Source of the DNA: Apostichopus japonicus
Taxonomy: Eukaryota; Echinodermata; Holothuroidea; Aspidochirotida; Stichopodidae
Length of the DNA: 64,000 nucleotides
Direction of reading: 5' to 3'
NCBI RefSeq assembly: GCF_037975245.1
Contig: NC_092578.1
Location: 1,116,001 to 1,180,000, forward strand
Position numbers and translations under genes: made by a program. Below are positions 33,715 through 63,153 of the stretch, piece by piece; position 1 is the stretch's first letter; every line of letters begins with the position of its first letter. The notes under the pieces are model-generated. The model was not told where the DNA came from, did no database searches, and saw only the letters and a program-made list of their open reading frames with translations.

Positions 33715-35494
33715 CAGTGGCGTAGGAAGGTACTTTTGAGTGGGGGGCTGAAGACTGATGGCCGGCCTGGGGGAGGGGTCTAATTCCTTTGGATTTTTTT
33801 TGCATTTCCAGGTGGCCTCAGATGCAATTTGGTGCAATATAGCACACTTCAACTCCCACTTCATTTTGATAAGTTAAGATAAGATTCACTTTATTTAACC
33901 CATTTCGGGTAATTAAATGCTCGATGTACAGAATAAGATGGATATAACATTAAAATACAGCACATGGAAAATGACTCACATAAAACAATAAGACAATAAA
34001 ATTACAAAGTCCAACAATGGCAAGACTAAGTATGACAAAAACAGTGAAGGTGTAACCAGAGGGCAAGAACACTAGCGATTGTAATTTTGATTATGGATTC
34101 TGATGCACTGTGGGACGAATGAGGAGAGGTGACGATTGGTTTTGGCTGTCGGCAGCCTCATCCTCCCGCTACGAGGAATCACTGCATTCTGAAATTGTCC
34201 ATGCAGTGGGTGGTCGGCATCCTTTAAAATCTTGTCTAATTTCTGTTGGAGTAGATGGGTATAACATGATGAGTAAGAGGGTTGGCTGTTGCCAATTATG
34301 CGGCCCGCCTGACGGATTAAAGAGTCTATACGGTTCTGATCTTCCTTTCTCGCATTCCCGCCCCAAGAACACGGGGTAGTAATCCATCTGGGCCAGCTGC
34401 TTTTGATACGTTTAGTTTAGAAAATTCAACACGCACTTCATGTGCAGTAACAGTTAAAAACTGCTCAGGATACGACTGCATAGATAACATTTCCCGTAAC
34501 TCACCAATCCCATGTGAAAAATCTAGGTGATCAAACCGATTGTAAAAAACATTAAGCTCATTTGCATATTCACGGGAAGTGTTTGGGAGTTTATCAGTCG
34601 ATCTATTGTCTTTCATGTAGCAACTCATCAGTCGTATACCCGCCCAAACCTCTTTCATATTATTTCCAGTAAAGTGACTGTCTATTTTACACTTGTATAA
34701 GTCCTTTCCTTTCTTTATTGCCCTGTCAAGTTCTTTTTGCACAGCCCTCAGCTCATCTCGGTTGTTTTGCCCGAAAATCTTCTTCTTTTTGTTGATGATC
34801 TTTTTAACCTCCTTGGTAATCCAGGGCTTGTTGTTGGCATACACCTTGATCTGTTTATCCGACACCGTACAGTCAACACAGAAATTAACGTAATCCGTAA
34901 TTGTTTGGGTGAGCTCGTCGATGTCCTCTGAAGCGTCAATGAATACGTCCCAATCAGTGAGGTCCAGCGAAGCTTGTAGATCCTCGATGGCCGCGGGGCT
35001 CCATTGTTTGACGGTAAGTAGCTTTGGTTTCTGTCTCTGAACAATAGGTCGGTACGCTGGTTGCAACAGGATCATGTCATGATCAGATCTTCCCAATTTG
35101 GTAATCGGTTTAGCTGTGTAAGCCCCCTTCACGTTTGAATAACAGAGGTCCAGGATTGCGGCATCTCGTGTTGGGCATTGTACGTGTTGATAATAGTTAG
35201 TATTGTTCCTCTTCAAACTACAATGATTGAAGTCGCCATCAATTACCATGAAGGCATTGGGATGTGCTATCTCAAGGTCTTGTATGATAGCACATAGCTC
35301 GTTTGTAAAGAATTTTGCATTTTCACCTGGCCTTAAATGCAATTTGGTGCTCCAAATGAGATTTTTTTTCTCATTTGGAAATGAAAAAGGGGTTTTCTGA
35401 CTTGCGGAGCGGGGGGCGGAATGATACTTCCGCCCCCCCATATTTTTCACTGGGGGGCTGGCGCCCCCCAGCCCCCCGGTTCCTACGCACCTTG
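33715..35494. mobile_element. hAT-like non-autonomous element with nested LINE
   Basis: The left end is CAGTGGCGTAGGAAGGTAC and the right end is its diverged inverted form (GGTTCCTACGCACCTTG). A perfect 8-bp target duplication, GTGCTCAT, flanks it at 33,707-33,714 and 35,495-35,502. The interior matches, in inverted orientation, the element at 37,547-37,924, but is split by a LINE fragment at about 33,873-35,308. 8-bp duplications and CAG...CTG-type ends are typical of the hAT superfamily. No transposase. Confidence 0.82.
33873..35308 (-). pseudogene. Internally deleted CR1/jockey-type LINE fragment
   Basis: The minus-strand frame contains the C-terminal half of an APE-type endonuclease (MVIDGDFNHCSL, GRSDHDMILLQP) and the first block of a reverse transcriptase (SKAAGPDGLLPRV). 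After a junction near 34,340-34,370 it reads the C-terminus of LINE ORF2 (SLIRQAGRIIG, ADHPLHGQF, TNRHLSSFVPQCIRIHN) to a TAG at 34,072-34,074. Most of the RT domain, including the active site, is missing. The 3' end near 33,873 carries AATAAAGTGAATCTTATC-like sequence. The element is 5'-truncated and dead. The first residues of the 374-codon frame come from the host hAT element. Confidence 0.85.
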
Positions 35495-36767
35495 GTGCTC
35501 ATAACTTGAATAGTGGAATTTATGTTATGCATGATTGGAAGTCTTTTTACCTCGTGAAAAGAGGAACAATGTTGATCACCCGTAGTGGAATATTTTGACT
35601 ACTTTTATTTAAGGTCTTGTTCTTTCTTAAGAAAAAATACAATGGTTTCATTGTTATTGTAGTTCTTGCCAATTCTTAGACCCATTGACATAAACAGTAA
35701 TGTCTTAATCAAATTCCATGACTTGAACGGTCAGTATTTTTAAACCCCATTCCCATTCCGGGGAATAATTGTACAACAATAAAGAAGGATGAAACATTAA
35801 AATTGAAGCATATCGGTGAGTCCGATGATTTCATATTTAGATTTGCTCCAGTCTTCAGCATTGTGTGTTAAAAATTTATATTAAAATTATATATATTAAA
35901 ATTGCCACATCTCTCAAACCGGAATGAATGGTAGCACTATATGGGCAGAAAAAGACGGTATGGAAAATCAATCCGCAAGCATTTCCCCAAATATGACATG
36001 TGTATATATTTAACACTGGTACATGCATCAATACTATTTTATGTTTCAATCTTTGATTTTCTCTTTTAGAACATGTAACATAAACAAAATGTTTGTAAAT
36101 GGTTGGGTAGGGGGTGGGTGGTGGGGGTGTTAAGTTCGATGAAGCAAGCTTTATTTTGGTAAAAGAAGTTGTGGAGTCAAAATCATCACTATTTCATATC
36201 CAGGTATTGCACAAACCAGTACAAAACTATATGCTAATAATCATCATCTTTATGGGCCCGAAGTTTAAAGTCATGCATCATTTGTACCGGAACTCTTCAG
36301 TCCATCCATAAAACTAAATATATTCATTCTACTTGGCTAAATACAATACCTTTGGTGTTATTAATCAAGCAGGAATAACTGCATACCATGGACTCTCTGC
36401 CGATGGATATATAACTAATTCCCCTCTTCTGTTTTCCCTTTTTGTTTTCTTTTTTCTCTCTTTTAATTTACTTTAGCACCTTTTCGTTAGCTACAGTCAC
36501 TGCGTTTGCCCTTGATTAAATCATCGTTGATTTACACCTTACTGCCCGAAATAGTCCCAAAAACGAAGTCGTTTACAAATGCTATATAACCATACCGTCC
36601 ATACGCCTTTTAGTTTTGTTCGTTCTATATTCAAATGTTAAAACTGATTGGGTTTTTTCCCAATGAGAGAATAGATCCATTTTTAGCAGCTGAGTCAGTC
36701 CAGTCGTGACGTCACTTTGATTATTGTACGCAATACATGCTTGTAATTCTTTAAGTGAAGTCAGTCA
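35495..36767. other. Intergenic, upstream of the death-domain gene
   Basis: Unique AT-rich sequence. It begins with the right copy of the GTGCTCAT target duplication (35,495-35,502). CTATATAACC near 36,582 is a possible TATA-like element. Nothing else recognised. Confidence 0.5.
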
Positions 36768-36899
36768 TGGACAGCGGAAACACTGTCAACAAATACGCAC
36801 ACGTTGTCGAAGATACTACGCGATACTACCGACCAGTGTTGTTCTCAGATTATAACGCAGTTGATGTACAAGGCTGTTCAGCGTTACGTATATAGGTAG
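36768..36899 (+). promoter_or_regulatory. Upstream ORF (43 codons) before the death-domain gene
   Basis: An ATG at 36,768 opens a 43-codon frame that stops at 36,897-36,899, five bases before the main start at 36,904 and in another frame. If transcription starts upstream, this would be a uORF able to reduce translation of the main frame, whose start context is weak (C at -3). Whether it lies in the transcript is unknown. Confidence 0.35.
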
Positions 36900-36903
36900 C
36901 CTA

Positions 36904-37234
36904 ATGGATAGGGTTGGTTACAAATTCTCTGATATAAAAGTCAAAGAATTGCCTTTGTTTTATCACCTAACGGTGGATCTTTCAACTTTACTGGATCAAG
37001 ATGATGCTCTTGGAAACGACTTTCAACGTTTTCTAAGCTTGATGGGATTTTGTATGCCCGAGATCGGTTTTCTGGAAAGCCGATATAAAAGACCTACAGT
37101 GGAAGCACTGAAAAGTTGGCCAGGGTCTACGGTAGAGTTAGTGCGAACTCTTCGAAAGTGCGAACGGGAAGATGCAGTTTTTTGTGTTAGACGCTGGCTC
37201 GGATACTTGGCTTTGCTATCCCGCTATGAAAGAA
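36904..37234 (+). CDS. MyD88-like death-domain protein, exon 1
   Basis: Starts at the first ATG after an in-frame TGA about 45 bp upstream and ends at AGAA|GTAAGT in phase 1. The 110 residues form one death domain. LPLFYHLTVDLSTLLDQ parallels the MyD88 opening LPLAALNMRVRRRLSLFL, and DFQRFLSLMGFCMPEIGFLE parallels [40 protein letters not shown] parallels the MyD88 stretch ending [23 protein letters not shown]. Death domains of this class build Myddosome-like assemblies below Toll/IL-1 receptors. There is no TIR domain in the following exons, so this is not a canonical MyD88. The three-exon model totals 461 residues. Confidence 0.75.
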
Positions 37235-39175
37235 GTAAGTTTCTCTACTTTACTGTATCACATGATAACTCAGAAATGTTCGATAACTATGTGAAAGTTT
37301 CTTGTTTTGTAATATGTTGGTCTGGACTATACGTTTAAGAAGAAAACCAGAATTGAAAGTAATAGGAAACTAACTAACAAGAAAATGTTGAATTATCATC
37401 ATTATTTCATGGATGTGAGATGAAGGCCCGGGCCCCCTACTGCGTGCACGACTTTTCGAGTTTCATGTGTTAATTTCCGCGGTGCCATGTTGTATGTATA
37501 CTGTACTTTTGATAAGCCTTGTCAAGTATATACATATAGGCTAGTTCAAGGGCGTTGGAACCGGGGGGCTGGGGGCGCCAGCCCCCCCGGTGAAAACTAT
37601 GGAGGGGCGGAAGTATCATTTCCCCCCCCCCCCCGCAAGTCAGAAAACCCCTTTTTCATTTCCAAATGAGAAAAAAAAATATCATTTGGAGACCAAATTG
37701 CATCTAAGGCCAGGTGAAAATGCAAAATTATATACAAAATGGAGTGGGTGGGTTGCAAATTATGAAGTGTGCTATATTGCACCAAATTGCATCTGAGGCC
37801 ACCTGGAAATGCAAAAAAAAATCCAAAGGGGAGGGGGACACCCCCTCCTCTTAGACCCCTCCCCCAGGCCGGCCATCAGTCTTTAGCCCCCCCCCCCACT
37901 CAAAAGTACCTTTCTACGCCACTGGACTAGTTTAATCTCTCAGGTCACGGCTACTATAATTCATGGGAAATTGTTTTTTCTTTCACGAGGGGGGGGGGGG
38001 GGTTGGTTCTACAAGAATGCCTCGACTGACAAGACATTTGAAACATGGTGAAATCAGTGATTTGATTTCTTCGATGTTTGCCAGTCATACTTACTTATTA
38101 AACTCAAGATTATTTAGCCCCTTTGTATAGAAGGGAAGGGATTTCCTGACTTAATCGACACTCTGCCCCACTTCTTGTCTAACTTGGCAGGTGACTGGAA
38201 AAAGTCGGATCCAATTTTAATCTTCTATATTTTAGTCTCTAACATAGTACCCTATATCCATCCCCCCCCCCCCCACCGACCATTCACCCTCCGGTACACC
38301 AAACGCACCCATTCGTTCAGTTCCGGCGTGCATTGAAACCTTTTACTTCTTTTTTTTTGTGTGTCACATGGGGTATATACCAAGGAGAAAGGGGTGGGGC
38401 TTATAACTTCCTAGATGTAGAGCCATCTCAACTTCTTTATCAACCAATAAAAAATGTTGCTTTATAGGCTTTTAATTTCGTGTCATTCAGATTTCAGACC
38501 ATTATCTACAATTTCACAGGCAATTGGGTCAACTTGGACCTATAAGTTTTAATATACCAATTTTCAATTCCTTAGTAGCATATTATTTCATACATTTCCA
38601 ATCCCCCAAACGTTGTGTCTTGCTTTTCATGTACGTATTGTGTTTTTGGTTCGTTTATGTGAAATGTCATCGTTATATATGTGATTATAAATCAATTGCA
38701 ATACAAACAAAATTATTATACAATACATATTAATGCAAAAAATCCGACAGAAAGGAAAAGGGAGCACGCATATATTAATTCCACATCGAGCTTCACCATA
38801 CACAGATAGAATTCATTCAGTATGCATGGGACACTTGGAAATTCCGCTCTTGTTACACGAGGTTGTTCATAAGTTGTTGTTGTTCTAGGCTTTCCCGGAT
38901 GTAGCTTCTCATCCTGGTTCTATACGTTATTTGCTCTACACGGCACGTGGTATACAGGCGGATATCTATGACTTACCGGTATAGGTCATTATAATATGAA
39001 CGATATCTCATATAGCTCAATTTCCTTTCTGCGGGATGTGCTCTTATCGAATATAACACCACACCTAATCCACCCCACCACTATACCTCAAGCCAAGATA
39101 CAGATCCCATATCTCTACGCCATCTTGCATCGTAAAGTTTTTACCCTAATCATTTATTTTATTCTTTGCCAACAG
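37235..39175. other. Intron 1 of the death-domain gene
   Basis: Contains the 37,547 hAT-like element, a run of 14 G at 37,989-38,002 and a run of 13 C at 38,262-38,274. No other gene. Confidence 0.6.
37547..37924. mobile_element. hAT-like non-autonomous element (same family as 33,715)
   Basis: A 378-bp element in intron 1 of the death-domain gene, starting CAAGGGCGTTGGAACC and ending TTTCTACGCCACTG. Flanking 8-mers GGCTAGTT and GACTAGTT differ at one base. Internally it carries the same A/G-rich segments as the 33,715 element (for example GGCCGGCCATCAGTC), plus long C runs. No coding capacity. Confidence 0.78.
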
Positions 39176-39394
39176 TGCGTACTTTTGGTTCAGATATACC
39201 TTCCGAATTCAGGGAGACAAGGGAACCATCAAGAATCCTCACACCGCCGTCCCAACCATCTTCGTTCATTAGCGGCAACATTCGAGATTACACTGAGACT
39301 GATTTACCGAGCATTGAACAACTCCTAAACGAGCAGTACTTCCCAAGCAATAAGAGGCGAAGAACAGCATCCTTTCTTGTTATAGACGACCATG
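39176..39394 (+). CDS. Death-domain protein exon 2, linker
   Basis: A 219-bp exon with acceptor TTTGCCAACAG|TG and donor CATG|GTTAGT, phase 1 at both ends, so it joins exons 1 and 3 in frame. It encodes residues 111-183: a Ser/Pro/Arg-rich linker (EPSRILTPPSQPSSF), a short predicted helix (DLPSIEQLLNEQYF), and a basic cluster NKRRRT that could be a nuclear-localisation or membrane-proximal signal. No known domain recognised. Confidence 0.65.
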
Positions 39395-40484
39395 GTTAGT
39401 ATAGCCCTAGCTTCTACCCCACCCCTTCCCCTCCCCACGACGGGGCCCGCATTTCATATCCCACCTGATGTCTGCGTATAACGTTAAAATAATTACCGGT
39501 AATAATTATGTAGGATAAGGCCATACGTAGGATAAGGTCATTCAAGTAAGGCAAAAATACTGCTATATGCTGCTCTATTTGTAGGTGGGAGTAGGAATAG
39601 GCTATGCAGAACTGAAGCACATAAGTCATGTAAACAATTCGTTAAGTTCGTACATGATTGCATCATATGCTCATAGAATGAGTTGATTGTATTGTACTAA
39701 GTGCATATGTTTGCAGGTATATATAGGCTAAGTGTATATATATGTACACATATACGCACGTTATCGCTGTGCTTTTCTATTTGTTTATGTGTAAATCATC
39801 AACACAACAAGTTTATAAAGGCTGTTACAAGAAGTACTTGTTTGGTCACTATATACATATCACTGACCGTTGCAGCTTATCAGGAAGCCCTAAAATGGTT
39901 ACCAGTTTAACAAAGATTAGACATAAACACTGTATAAAATTGATTATCTACGTTGAACTTATTCTGCGCGACTTCATGAAAGTGTGAATATGTGAGTCCG
40001 CATAGGCACATATCTCGCATTCTGTGCAAAGTATAGCCCTCGTGATTCAGATCCTCAATGTGTGGGCGTATATGTGTATATTTGCAGAATATCACTCATT
40101 TTGGGAAGGAAGACTTTCTTTCGAAGTGGAAAGTTTGGATTATAATAGATAAATGCAGGCCTATGTCAGATTTAATGCAATCCTATGAGGAGCGCTGTAA
40201 GTTTATCTGTATAACTTGCCCTTCAGCCGAGTCGGAGAAATTTACATGGGAAAGTTCCGTTTATTCATAACACAAGTATATGAAACTGAACAATATGGGA
40301 ACTATTAAAATTGTGTGCACTTATTCCTGGAAAAAGGTGTCTACTGGTTCAAACTACGCATGCACAAAGTATGATCGTTGAAGAGGTTAACCTCGATATA
40401 TACCTCCCCTGACTTGCTAGGGAAATGACCGCGGTATAAGTCAATCTAAATTCATTAGTTATCCATGTCGATATCGCCGACTGA

Positions 40485-42751
40485 CAGCGACGTAGCCAGG
40501 AATTTGAAAGGGGGGGAGCACTTTTTGCGATTGATATGGATTTTCAAAGTTGTAGGCACGACTATCTGAGCGGAGCGCCACCATCTGTTGGCGCGGAGCA
40601 TACAAGAAAACTTTTGGTTTTACAAACCCCCCAGATGACCGGAAACGGCCCTTCCCTAGTGTTCATTCTGGTTCCCTGGCCTCTTGCTAACTTGAGACAC
40701 CTCATTCAATATCACTTTTAAACCCAAAAAACAAACGAGTTAAAATAGTACGTAATTCAATTATACATAATGTATTAAAATTAGCAAGTTACACAAGGGC
40801 GGCGGAAGCACTTTTAATCTGGGGGGGGGGGGGGGGCACCGACGTCAAAGGGCACTTTGCAGAAATTCGATTGGACTGATGCAGCCTGATATTTAGTACC
40901 CTTTATAAATCTTATTGTATTATCTTATTTGCGTATACACATCACTCCATCAACGCCCCCCCCCCCCCGTCTTAGTAGTCTTACTTTTCAACTTCTGATA
41001 CTTGTAGATACAAAGATAGGCCAGAAATGTCTTTGATACAACCATAGCCAGTATTTGTCTTTGATACAACGTAGCTAGTAAATGTTTATCGAAAAGGCTG
41101 TTTTGGAACTTGGAACGCCGATCGTGACAACAACAGGCAACAAAGTGCTGCAGCTCTATACATATAAAGTCTGTTAATCAACGATAGGCTTATTTGACTG
41201 TGGAATGTTCTCAACTGAAATTTTATCTGCGTAAACGGGTTCTTAAGTAGATGTTAAAAAACTGACAAGATCGTATCCTAGTCTTTTTCGGCGGGTAGAG
41301 TATTGAATGAAACGGCACGCGATATGAATGACAGCCTATAGATGACAGAAGAATAGGTCACCTAATTTAGCCATAATCTTGCTACGTTCATTTCAATAGT
41401 TTTTCCTGTCTAGACTCTTAGACTCGTCCAGCAAGCTTATGGATTTGAATTATGGGTGTCTTAATAAAAAAGATAACTTGGCCAAAAAAAGTGTAGGCCC
41501 GGGCCTACACTTTGGTGTTTTAATAAAAAAGATAACTTGGCCAAAAAAGTGTAGGCCCGGGCCTACAGTGCTACATACTGGCTACGCCCCTGATAGTTCT
41601 AAATTAGGATTAGATCTCTTACTGAAATATCACTGACCTAATAAGGTGATCAAGAGTACAAGTTTTATGTAGAAAAAGGGCACATTTTTAACCTGAGGAA
41701 AAGTGGGGGGCAATTGCCCCCTGTGCCCCCCGGTTCCGCCGCCCTTGAAGGTACATGTACAGAGTAGTCTTACTTTTCAACTTCTGATACTTGTAGATAC
41801 AAAGATTGTCCAGAAATGTCTTTGATACAACTGTAGCTAGTAAATGTTTAAGTTAGCCTAATAAGAGAAGGCGAGAGCTATCCGACGATTGCCATTTGAT
41901 GCAAATTTCTCAAGTGTTTTCTCAACTGAAATATTATCTGCGTAAACGGGTTCTTAACTACATGTTAAAAAACTGACAAGATCAGATCCTATAGTCTTTT
42001 TTCGGCGGGTAGAGTGTTGAATGAAACTATCGTGCTACATACTGGCTACGCCCTGATCATATGATATCAGTATCAGCAGATTTTGTTTCCTGTTTAAATT
42101 CTTTTACATGTTCTTTTACATAATATATCAGAAAGACAAACATAGTGCTCTTTTACAAGTTTTCCAGTAGGATGATTCTTGTTTATTGTCCAATGTCTGG
42201 ACTTTAATACATTTGACGAACTTAACTGATGGACAATATAAACTTTCATATTTTGTAATACAGCCAGATATGCAGTGGCCTAAAAACAAATATCGTTATC
42301 GCAGTGTATTAGCAGTGTAATAATTATTTATAGGAAGTGCGTATCACGTACGATTGCTAGCTTAGCTTCATAACATGCTGTTCGTGCAACAACTTAGGAC
42401 GACTCATTGAACGAACGTTGTCGACGTTGTTGTGCATACAGTTCGTGACATTCCATAGAGTGCGGTTAGGTAGGCAATATGTATTTTATAACGCAGTGGC
42501 CAACTGTAGAGCTTGTAATTGGCTATAAGCTAATTTAGCTAATTGCATCTGCCAAACTAAGTAAGTAGTTGAATCAGTAGGCGTGAATGTTACTACGATT
42601 ACAATCGAGTTAACGGAGCTGACGAGTATTCAAGATCAAAAGAGCACTGACAAAATACCATGCTAAAAAAACGACAGTTTAAAAAAAAAAAAATCGACAC
42701 TGAAAGGGGGGGAGCGGTCGCTCCCCCTGCTCCCCCCTGGCTACTTCCCTG
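40485..42751. mobile_element. 2.27-kb non-autonomous hAT-like element with internal insertion
   Basis: Left end CAGCGACGTAGCCAGG, right end CCTGGCTACTTCCCTG, flanked by the perfect 8-bp direct repeat CCGACTGA (40,477-40,484 and 42,752-42,759). It sits in intron 2 of the death-domain gene. It contains a second element (about 40,793-41,748) and two partial duplications of its own interior. No transposase frame seen. Confidence 0.8.
40793..41748. mobile_element. Nested element with GGGCGGCGGAA termini
   Basis: The left end AAGGGCGGCGGAAGC and right end GGTTCCGCCGCCCTT are inverted copies, each followed inward by G- or C-rich tracts and a GGGCAC-type motif. It lies inside the 40,485-42,751 element. 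The target duplication is not clear. The interior holds a tandem pair of about 60-bp units with the palindrome GTAGGCCCGGGCCTAC. Confidence 0.55.
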
Positions 42752-43364
42752 CCGACTGATATATGTCCGACAAATCTCTCACCGAAATGAGAAAGTTGAC
42801 AGCTAATCATCGATGATAGCTATCGACGGCACGGACACAGCTAGGCCGCAGAAGGGGTTCAACCGGGGAGGGTGGGGGAGATTTCGAGGGTATGGTGGGT
42901 CATGACTTTGACTTTCAAAAAGTCCCGACAGAAGAACTTTTTTATGGTTTTCCACTCATGAGCACGGTTTAGCAATATATGACATGACGTCGGTTTGCAA
43001 TGGTTTAGCAATATGACATGACCTCGGTTTGCAACTGTTTGCTTTCATTGTGTACATTAACTTCATTGTACTCCTCAAATACTTAGTAAGTAATTAGAAA
43101 GAATTGCATGTGAAAAATTGTGATCAATTTATGGCAGAAAAAATTCCTTCTTTTTCAATTGTTTCTTTTTCCTTCAAATGACTGCATTATATACTGGCCA
43201 TATGCGGTATGCTCATTAATCTTCTTTGCTGTAAGGATATATTTTGGTTCAATTTCATTCATGTCATTCATGTCAAATTAGTCGATTGATTAGCAAATTC
43301 ATCGATAAATCGACCATTTCGATTGTACTTGACGTCATTTTCCGTCTTCATTTTTTCTTTTCAG

Positions 43365-44200
43365 ATACGTCACCAATTCGAAAGTCGAGCGAATATCTCT
43401 GTAGAAAATTTACTTCTCTCGTGAAAAACTGTTTTCTTATTCCGAAGGACGCTACTTGGATGACCAATTCGACGGCTTACATCAATAATTTCGCCAGGGT
43501 ATTTTGTTTCACAATGATTGTTGTGAATTTGATAGACAGCATATTTTCTCCCCGCCATTATCCAGATTATTGGATGGAATTGGTCATCTCAATCCTACCA
43601 GTCATGGAATCGATTTACGTCGATAAACATATTGAACCATACAAAGAGATCATAAGAAAGGTTATAATATGCCAAGAAAGGATGACCACTCTACAGAGTG
43701 CTCTAACGAAGAAATTACTTCACAGAAAGGACGGTACATGTTCAGATTGCTGCTTTCAGAAAGAAGTTGACATTTCGAGAAAACCAAGTTTAAATTATGG
43801 ATCGTGTGAGTGTGTAGATATATACAATGAACTGCAACAGGAAAAGAAGAACTACCATTCTTATTTTCGACAGGCAATTCCAAAATACTCCGATTTGAAA
43901 CTTTGTGTTTTCTGTACGCTTGTTGCTGAAGCGACCATCATAATGTTGTTGCTTTTAGATTTTGTGTTCTGTAGCACATTCGCCTCATTGCACGAGAGAT
44001 TACGTAACGGATTTACAAGCATAGCTTATGGACTTTTATTTTTGGACTGTTTCTACAACGGTGTAGTCATTTTGTGTTACTATCACGATTCCACACCACA
44101 GACGGTAATAAGAAAAGATCGATTTCGGCAAAGGATTGACGTCGAATTAGAGGAATCGCATCTTCGCCATAGAGCCAGAACTCATCCATCTGAGGAATGA
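43365..44200 (+). CDS. Death-domain protein exon 3, predicted multi-pass membrane region
   Basis: Terminal exon with a very good acceptor (TTTTTTCTTTTCAG), entered in phase 1 as Asp-Thr-Ser-Pro, ending at TGA 44,198-44,200. It encodes residues 184-461. Four hydrophobic stretches are visible at about 227-245, 253-270, 362-388 (CTLVAEATIIMLLLLDFVF) and 397-423. Between the pairs lies a hydrophilic loop with a Cys cluster (CSDCCFQKE, CECVDIYNELQQEKK). The tail is basic, then acidic. The longer open frame upstream of the acceptor is intronic. No family recognised. Risk: this exon may belong to a separate gene. Confidence 0.65.
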
Positions 44201-60738: not shown

Positions 60739-61802
60739 GTACCGAAAAGGAACTTTGACTTAATTTATAACATACCAGCATGTTGCTATGATTATAGTTT
60801 TAACAGAGATTGTTGACTGGTTACTGAGGGAGAGTGGAGGGGGGGGGGGTGGCCTGCATTGGAAAGGTCTTTAAATATTTTCTGTTTGAGGATAGACAGG
60901 GATATAAGGTTCTCATCATCTCAACTCGCATGACTCACTTTGATCGTCCTAAAGATACTCCTGAACCCAAGAGTCTGCTCAGAATGCTGATCAACGGATC
61001 AAGAAATGTACTAAAATAAATGTCAAAATATTGGACTGAAATACTTGGACTCAGTACTGGCAAACTGAGACAAAGAAAAGAAGCCAAAATCTAGAACTAA
61101 CAAACATCGAAGAGGGAGAATGGAACACCTGCTTCAAAGTTCTCATAAAATTCATCTGCCAAAAGTGGTGTGATGTAAGAAGTGGAGGCCCTTAATGATC
61201 ACCGTAGGCTTCCTAACGTGCGTGTTTACCAAAATTAACAGATACACAAACCCAAACATCATTACTGGTGTGTGTGGTAGAGATAACTGTTGTGAACAAC
61301 TCCCCCATACAGCTGAGAAGATGTCACAGATTTAATACCTCTTCAAATGCAAAGCTGAAGACTTTTCTGAGGGTATTACAAATTTTACTCAGGCGAATGT
61401 TTGCTACCCCTATCGTCCGATGTCGGTTGCATATGTAGTTTATAATTGGGAACTGTTTCTGATATGCAGCTTCTTAGCTACTATAACAATTTTCAGATGG
61501 ACAAACTATGTGCATAGTTTTGTGTGTTGAATGCACAAAATGTTCAATTTTTGTGATCATTATCTGTTCAAACGTTAATAGCTCTAATAAAATGGTCAGT
61601 GTTTTCAGAAACACATTTCTGGACAATGTTTATCGCTACTCTGAAACAGTTGCAACTTATTAAAAGTCAGTGTCCCAGTATTTTTGGCTCACAGCTGCAG
61701 TTGTCTCACAGCTGTCTCCTATGCTGTTGGATAATATTGAACAAGTTTTAAATGCAAGTGTTTGATACAACATGTTCATATATCTTCTTTCTGTTTTTCC
61801 AG

Positions 61803-62261
61803 GGTTACAAATTGTCTACAATGGAGCCCACACACTGGATATAGTTATTCCTGCTGAAAGAGGGGCTAAAGTGTGTGGCCTGTGTGGCAGTATGCACTTG
61901 ACTGATACCGGTTTTGTAGATCCTCAAAGTAATGAAAGACTTTCATATGTTGAATTCTTCTATAAAATGGCTGTACCTGGACAATATCATCAGATAACAG
62001 GTAGTATGGAACTTTGTCAAGACACACAATCTGAACAGCTGGCAAAAGACCAATGCAGGTTTCTTTTAGAAGAACCATTTGCGAAGGCATCGTACGTTTT
62101 GGATCTGCCAGCACATTTTGGGGCTTGTTTGGTATCAGTATGTAACTGCTTAAATACTGGCTCTAAAGATTGCCAAGGCTGTGAGGTTGCCGAGCATGCA
62201 GCGTTTATCGCCAACAATCAAGGTGTTCCAGTCACAAGTTGGAGAACAACCGATTTCTGCC
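61803..62261 (+). CDS. SSPO: SCO-spondin-like exon 8, VWD end and C8 domain
   Basis: Acceptor CTGTTTTTCCAG|GG, donor TGCC|GTGAGT, phase 1 at both ends. It encodes LQIVYNGAHTLDIVI and the VWD hallmark CGLCGSM. A C8 module follows (CQDTQSEQLAKDQCRF ... GACLVSVCNCLN ... CQGCEVAEHAAFI) with the expected clustered cysteines. The Cys-Gly-Leu-Cys motif is the vicinal-cysteine site implicated in multimer formation in VWF and mucins. Confidence 0.88.
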
Positions 62262-63153
62262 GTGAGTAAATATTTTTGTACTTAATAGACAAAAGGGGGT
62301 GTTGTGTCTGATTCTTTCACTGCATATGGCTATACACCTTGGATTTTGGAAGGGTAATTACTGTGGTTGAAGTGTCTGCAGTGAGCTATTTCTGTAAGTA
62401 GAGAAAGGAGATGGGTTGTTGTGGAGGGGGAGGGGTGCAGGGAGGGTAAAGAGAGGAGACTATGTAGGAGAGTGGATCAGGCCCCTGTTAGATAATGCTT
62501 ACATAATCTAACTGATGAATTATTTGATTGACCTATATACTGCACTACGATCTGCCCTGCCTATAGCAATAACACCCGAGACCCCTGTCTTTGGCCAAAA
62601 CAGGGGAGATTGAATATCTACCGGAGTTAGCCACACTGAATGCTCCTCTCTACAAGTTCCTGATTAAACACACAGTATACTATTTCAGTGGTCAAGCCAA
62701 ATTTGTCTTCACACAGGAAAGTAGTGCTGGCCATTGGAGTACTTGTGTTTAAATACAATCATACGATGGCTGGTCAATTAATTAGGTGTGCTCAAGGATT
62801 AATCCTAATGACAGTACTTGGGGTAGTTTATGCTATTTAGTAACAAATTATTAATGCTCGAGTGCACTTGAGGAGGACTGATTTCTATAGGCAGGCTTGA
62901 CTGTCATGTGGTGGTGGAATCAAATTCTTGGGCCAATGCAGACCAACATTAAATGGATACAAAATGTTAGAAAAGATGAGCCCCCTATCCTGTGACATGA
63001 ACATATTAGTATCTGCACATGACAAATAAATTATGTTTTTATAGTATGAACAGCTGTACTACCCGTCATTAATTTGTGGCAGAATGAAATATAGATTTTA
63101 ATTAGATGGCGCCTCTTTGTAAATATCACTTTTAATGTATCTCTTGTCCACAG

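What the first reader, a model, noticed from the sequence alone, without database searches (positions are those of the whole stretch)
36904..44200. Death domain joined to a multi-pass membrane region, without TIR
Three exons joined by good GT-AG sites, all in phase 1, give a 461-residue protein. An N-terminal death domain with MyD88-type spacing is followed by a linker and about four hydrophobic segments around a Cys-rich loop. Known death-domain adaptors are soluble, and death-domain receptors carry the domain on the cytoplasmic C-terminal side of a single membrane segment. An N-terminal death domain on a multi-pass C-terminus would be a new arrangement, perhaps a membrane-anchored Myddosome nucleator or decoy.
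Basis: partly seen in the sequence, partly recalled or inferred. Interest (0 to 1): 0.8.

Follow-up and report, generated by a model that had tools for sequence, protein, structure and literature searches.

The report
Death domain with predicted membrane tail
This animal gene model joins a cell-signalling 'death domain' to a tail that probably sits in a membrane; the parts look real, but only RNA evidence can show that they form one protein, and the domain is not simply a second copy of the immune adaptor MyD88.

Summary
The three-exon model is present: GT-AG junctions, phase 1/1, 461 residues. The N-terminus is a genuine death domain (Pfam 32.5 bits, cut-off 22.6). Exon 3 has a 321-codon open frame not reached in 60 simulated windows, an acceptor ranking 4 of 3674, and three clear plus one weak hydrophobic segment. 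It has no Pfam or PDB relative and no credible second copy in the genome. Not shown: that exon 2 joins exon 3. Read through its donor, exon 2 meets a stop at once, so a soluble 184-residue adaptor beside a separate membrane gene is a serious rival; exon 3 also lacks codon-position bias. The MyD88 link is weaker than claimed: MyD88 itself lies on contig C4, and other death domains are closer to the window's. No TIR was found in the window. Membrane-anchored adaptors such as MAVS and Drosophila MyD88 already exist. Best reading: a membrane-anchored death-domain scaffold, a new variant of a known kind, at moderate confidence.

The parts
36904..37234 (+). Exon 1: start codon and death domain, ends in phase 1
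   Evidence: donor GTAAGT, rank 55 of 3665
36979..37194 (+). Death domain (Pfam PF00531), residues 26-97
   Evidence: 32.5 bits, E 9.3e-08, cut-off 22.6; 36.4 bits
39176..39394 (+). Exon 2: linker of about 73 residues; read through the donor it meets TAG at 39397-39399
   Evidence: acceptor rank 110 of 3674, donor rank 164 of 3665
39199..39216 (+). PSEFRE, fits a recalled TRAF6-binding pattern P.E..(aromatic/acidic); weak, 0.34 expected by chance
43365..44200 (+). Exon 3: linker end, hydrophobic segments, Cys-rich loop, C-terminal tail, stop
   Evidence: acceptor rank 4 of 3674; no stops in frame
43490..43546 (+). Hydrophobic segment 1, residues 226-244
   Evidence: KD 1.81
43568..43624 (+). 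Hydrophobic segment 2, residues 252-270, weak
   Evidence: KD 1.07
43739..43813 (+). Cys cluster CSDCC...CEC, residues 309-333, in a basic loop
43901..43957 (+). Hydrophobic segment 3, residues 363-381, strongest
   Evidence: KD 2.56
44021..44077 (+). Hydrophobic segment 4, residues 403-421
   Evidence: KD 1.82

Best explanation
A gene with no second copy found in its genome encodes a 461-residue protein: a cytosolic N-terminal death domain, a linker of roughly 115-130 residues, and a membrane region of three or four helices with a basic Cys-rich loop. It most likely works as a membrane-anchored death-domain scaffold: the membrane part places and clusters the protein, and the clustered death domains recruit soluble death-domain partners. 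Shown: the death domain, the open frames, the hydrophobic segments. Inferred: the splice to exon 3, the topology (N-terminus inside and Cys loop inside, because the loop has 16 Lys+Arg to 11 Asp+Glu; positive-inside rule, recalled), the clustering mechanism and the partners.
For: Valid in-phase model; Death domain over the Pfam cut-off; exon 2 codon score 0.112, in the range of known exons; exon 3 frame beyond chance; acceptor 3 among the four best of 3674 AGs and no Met until 31 codons into the exon, so exon 3 is probably spliced to something upstream; intron 2 holds only 2 other candidate phase-1 first exons by the rule used (8 control stretches hold 0-2 each); no TIR exon found in the window; hydrophobic peaks rare in residue shuffles (6 of 2000); six helices predicted for exon 1, at low confidence.
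Against: No transcript. Donor 2 is only fair and a stop follows it directly. The two nearest single-domain relatives that I read in this genome (L009, L020) carry tails without a membrane segment (largest KD -0.31 and 0.58). Exon 3 has no codon-position bias, a codon score near zero, and no relative in anything searched. Its fold model is poor (pLDDT 48). Noncoding frames here are often hydrophobic too. One of the two other candidate first exons in intron 2 is longer (139 bases) than any in the controls (largest 106).
Confidence: 0.45

Rival explanations
1. Two genes: a small soluble death-domain adaptor of 184 residues (exons 1-2, ending ...IDDHG by reading through donor 2), and a separate multi-pass membrane protein using exon 3, with a start at 43460 or an upstream first exon not recognised here.
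For: Stop directly behind donor 2; the nearest death domains L009 and L020 have tails without a membrane segment in the same frame; the frame of exon 3 is also open upstream of the acceptor, so openness does not show where it begins; polyadenylation-type hexamers lie between (40304, 40774, 41463, 41522); a 46-codon candidate first exon at 40058-40196.
Against: Acceptor 3 is very strong and needs an upstream exon; the phases match; the other candidate first exons are short.
Confidence: 0.33
2. A membrane-held decoy: the death domain binds MyD88 or other partners without passing the signal on, damping Toll-type signalling.
For: No TIR and no kinase family in the model; the EREDA stretch is close to EREDV of the genome's own MyD88.
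Against: MyD88 is only its fifth-nearest domain of 60; nothing here tests the direction of signalling.
Confidence: 0.1
3. Exon 3 is not a working coding exon (chance frame or decayed gene), so only the death domain is real.
For: No codon-position bias and a codon score near zero; no homologue found; noncoding frames of this DNA also often look hydrophobic.
Against: 321 codons without a stop, 0 of 60 simulations, P about 1.5e-6 locally, beside one of the best acceptors in the window.
Confidence: 0.12

Closest known systems
MyD88 (death domain, intermediate domain, TIR)
   Same: N-terminal death domain; exon ending in phase 1 after the domain, as in this genome's MyD88
   Different: No TIR found; intron lies about nine residues later; a separate MyD88 is on contig C4; hydrophobic C-terminus instead
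MAVS (N-terminal CARD, C-terminal membrane anchor)
   Same: Death-fold domain at the N-terminus and a membrane anchor at the C-terminus (layout recalled); described as a transmembrane adaptor in PMC6901815 (passages)
   Different: Death domain, not CARD; three or four hydrophobic segments, not a single tail anchor (recalled)
Drosophila MyD88 with C-terminal membrane-binding domain
   Same: Adaptor held at the membrane by its C-terminal domain (passages of PMC3959197)
   Different: Binds lipid peripherally and keeps a TIR domain
Death receptors, p75NTR, UNC5
   Same: Membrane protein with a death domain
   Different: Theirs is at the cytoplasmic C-terminus behind one membrane segment (recalled); here it is at the N-terminus
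BFAR and BAP31 (recalled)
   Same: Multi-pass ER proteins said to carry a death-effector-like domain
   Different: Not a death domain; no sequence test was made; one search was seen as a listing only and one search listed no paper
SMSr/SAMD8
   Same: An N-terminal SAM interaction domain on an ER membrane enzyme that oligomerises through it (title and start of abstract in the listing)
   Different: SAM, not death domain; an enzyme

Membership tests
Death domain (PF00531) | Match over the curated Pfam score | tested here: met
   32.5 bits against 22.6; 36.4 bits in the genome-wide search
Death domain (PF00531) | Six-helix death fold | tested here: inconclusive
   Six helices but pLDDT 46; best Foldseek hits are FADD death domains, best E 1.1
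MyD88 | TIR domain downstream of the death domain | tested here: not met
   No TIR in the model protein; six TIR queries find nothing in the window better than E 0.07. The Pfam search is weak evidence, as it missed MyD88's own TIR exons
MyD88 | Death domain closest to MyD88 death domains | tested here: not met
   MyD88 fifth of 60 by alignment Z; the tree pairs the two MyD88s (99/88) without the window, which sits on a long branch
Death receptor / p75NTR / UNC5 | Extracellular domain, one membrane segment, C-terminal death domain | tested here: not met
   Death domain at residues 26-97, hydrophobic segments after it, no ectodomain family
MAVS | N-terminal CARD | tested here: not met
   Only Death was listed at E up to 10 (HMMER filters apply)
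TMEM26 | Tmem26 profile match in the membrane region | tested here: not met
   No Pfam match; profiles from this genome's copies rank the window 21 of 454 (N-terminal part) and 346 of 473 (C-terminal part) rows scored; hhalign probability 2.4 and 0.2
Integral membrane protein | Membrane-spanning helices | tested here: inconclusive
   Hydropathy only: three clear segments, one weak

The most novel reading that the evidence does not exclude
A lineage-restricted protein in which an N-terminal death domain is fused to an orphan multi-pass membrane domain, acting as a receptor-free, membrane-resident nucleator of death-domain assemblies, a death-domain counterpart of MAVS that could be triggered by a membrane signal through the polytopic part.
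Probability: 0.3. Interest if true: 0.62.

Novelty: new variant of a known kind. Interest (0 to 1): 0.42.

Why it matters
If one transcript carries all three exons, death-domain signalling would have a multi-pass entry point with no classical ectodomain, and the orphan membrane domain would be a candidate sensor. It would also add to the evidence that invertebrates rewire immune and death pathways by joining domains in new ways, as reported for amphioxus (passages of PMC2575513). If the exons belong to two genes it is an ordinary, if divergent, small death-domain adaptor.

Tried and rejected
TMEM26: the stretch PDYWMELVISILPVMES looked like the first hairpin of TMEM26 (recalled), a family with 24 matches listed in this genome. 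Profiles built from six N-terminal and five C-terminal pieces of the genome's copies did not support it (the window ranks 21 of 454 and 346 of 473 rows scored, out of 501 given each time; hhalign 2.4 and 0.2). Rejected.

The window gene as the animal's MyD88: rejected, because a MyD88 gene is on C4.

TIR exons in the window: none found (best of 25 rows shown E 0.073). Some weaker TIR hits elsewhere were read by eye: IL-1-receptor-like Ig-TIR genes (L016, L017), a TIR frame (L018), death-effector-like plus TIR genes (L022, L024); a death-domain profile found nothing convincing in these loci (20 rows shown, best E 0.35).

Second copies of exon 3: hits at E 0.011 and 0.21 (L006, L007) are partial, 34% identical and contain a stop; taken as chance hydrophobic matches, with only an ORF list read for each.

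Relatives of exon 3 in viral contigs, prokaryote genomes, NCBIfam, Pfam, PDB: none. Foldseek on both models: nothing with E <= 0.001; the exon 3 model is too poor to interpret.

Codon usage and codon-position asymmetry: tried as coding tests; mixed to unfavourable. In one search exon 2 was also scored in a wrong frame (-0.008); the right one, starting at 39178, gives 0.112. TRAF6-type motif: present once, 0.34 expected, not relied on. Rfam at gathering scores: nothing in the window. Paper searches for this architecture: (15 of 68 papers listed; 15 of 220; 15 of 44; none found; 12 of 47) showed no such protein in what was listed; that is not proof that none is in print. Other animal genomes could not be searched with these tools. 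The species was not identified.

Full report
What was checked. The window is G000:C18:1116001-1180000 of a 671.6 Mb assembly in 35 contigs; the species was not identified. The three exons at 36904-37234, 39176-39394 and 43365-44200 join with GT-AG ends in phase 1 and 1 and give 461 residues; of the 108 combinations of ends tried around those stated, only this one had GT-AG at both introns and an open frame.

The death domain. Pfam finds Death (PF00531) at residues 26-97 with 32.5 bits, above the curated 22.6. The genome-wide search lists it too, as the last of 150 listed matches at 36.4 bits (150 of 204 candidates scored). It is real but divergent: against a profile of this genome's own domains, which was seeded in part with the window domain, it scores lowest of 61 (35.2 bits). 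No death domain in the PDB is listed for it by sequence (only unrelated weak rows). The fold model of exon 1 alone has six helices but low confidence (pLDDT 46), and its best Foldseek rows are FADD death domains at E 1.1 to 1.5.

Is it MyD88-like? The window is not among the 14 places listed. As a query itself, the window domain finds only one other place at E up to 1, L009 at E 0.009 and 32% identity. Of 60 other domains that I read from this genome, the window is nearest to L009 (Z 17.8), then the first domain of L021 (12.0), L020 (8.2), L048 (7.9) and MyD88 (6.8). In a tree of 61 rows on 92 columns the window falls in an 11-row set (98/86) with both MyD88 rows, L009, L020, both L021 domains, L048, L070, L083 and L091, on a long branch (1.84); the two MyD88 rows pair at 99/88 without it. 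The tool warns that rows on long branches are unsure. L048 lies in a frame that looks DAPK-like to me. So 'MyD88-type' is fair for the broad class only. The MyD88 exon on C4 also ends in phase 1, 13 residues after the Arg of ERED; the window exon ends about 22 after it (counted by eye).

TIR. Six TIR queries read from this genome (three MyD88 exons, three Toll-like frames) find nothing in the window better than E 0.07, while in control loci they find each other and a further TIR frame at E 1e-9 to 1e-5. The genome-wide Pfam TIR searches have one hit on C18, about 850 kb away; they also missed the MyD88 TIR exons on C4, so their silence near the window means little by itself.

The membrane part. 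Exon 3 has no Pfam family at E up to 10, no NCBIfam family, no PDB relative, none in viral contigs or prokaryote genomes, and no credible second copy in its own genome. Hydropathy gives clear segments at 226-244, 363-381 and 403-421 and a weak one at 252-270. The loop 277-362 has 16 Lys+Arg, 11 Asp+Glu and six Cys, five of them in CSDCC and CEC. By the positive-inside rule (recalled) that loop and the death domain would both be cytosolic, with two hairpins; this is inference. The hydrophobic pattern is above residue shuffles (three peaks >= 1.6 in 6 of 2000; maximum >= 2.55 in 11 of 2000) but less unusual against noncoding frames of the same DNA (158 and 43 of 2394).

Is exon 3 coding, and is it joined? 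For: a 321-codon stop-to-stop frame, not reached in 60 simulated windows (largest 227); 0 stops against 20 and 13 in the other forward frames of the exon; acceptor rank 4 of 3674. Against: codon-position asymmetry no higher than noncoding DNA (36% of 274 noncoding stretches reach it) while known coding stretches score higher, and a codon score of about zero against 0.060-0.126 for the known frames that trained it and a noncoding mean of -0.086, SD 0.084. The VWD/C8 exon of the window also scores about zero, so this test is weak here. Exon 1 scores 0.034 and exon 2, in its proper frame, 0.112, so exon 2 looks coding by this measure, though its codon-position asymmetry is very low. The join is supported by phase (one in three by chance) and by lack of a clearly better upstream exon: two candidates in intron 2, as many as in the richer control stretches (0-2 each), though one, of 139 bases, is longer than the controls' longest of 106. 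It is opposed by a fair donor 2 (rank 164 of 3665) and by the stop directly behind it at 39397-39399, which would give a complete 184-residue soluble protein. The relatives L009 and L020 end in Ser-rich tails with no membrane segment (largest KD -0.31 and 0.58), which favours a soluble reading; their full genes were not built.

Mechanism. The best-supported account is a membrane-anchored death-domain scaffold. The membrane part fixes location and promotes clustering; clustered death domains recruit soluble partners. Only the domain, the frames and the hydrophobic segments are shown. The anchoring principle is known: MAVS and STING are inserted in the membranes where their complexes form, and Drosophila MyD88 uses lipid binding (passages of PMC6901815); plasma-membrane localisation of Drosophila MyD88 is cited as necessary and sufficient for Toll signalling (passages of PMC3959197). 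Decoy function is possible and untested.

Novelty. What would be new is a death domain ahead of an orphan multi-pass domain. The rows listed by paper searches showed no such protein; other animal genomes were out of reach, so absence elsewhere is not shown.

Noticed in passing
window 36767-36895 (+): A 42-codon upstream open frame in a strong start context (TCAGTCATGG) ends 8 bases before the death-domain ATG, which has a weaker context (AGCCTAATGG); the transcript may start inside it, or translation may be held down.
   Followed up: partly
G000:C16 1.09-1.15 Mb (L022, L024): Two neighbouring loci seem to join a death-effector-like exon to a TIR exon; the first label is by eye.
   Followed up: no
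G000:C12, many places: 79 of the 150 listed death-domain hits, by my count, lie on this one contig, a large local expansion.
   Followed up: no
G000:C8:22.90-23.00 Mb: A cluster of TMEM26-family matches, with more on C8, C17 and C20.
   Followed up: partly
L009 and L020 (C8:1.308 Mb, C8:16.01 Mb): Death-domain frames end in Ser-rich tails with DSG-type motifs (DDSGYRSIIDP, SDDSGFVTS), like the recalled phosphodegron DSGxxS.
   Followed up: no
window 34326-35498 (-): A 390-aa frame that looks to me like a retrotransposon endonuclease remnant; Pfam gave only a weak RNase H row.
   Followed up: no
window 61766-62266 (+): Exon of a von Willebrand factor D / C8 domain protein: C8 over its cut-off, VWD below it.
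   Followed up: no
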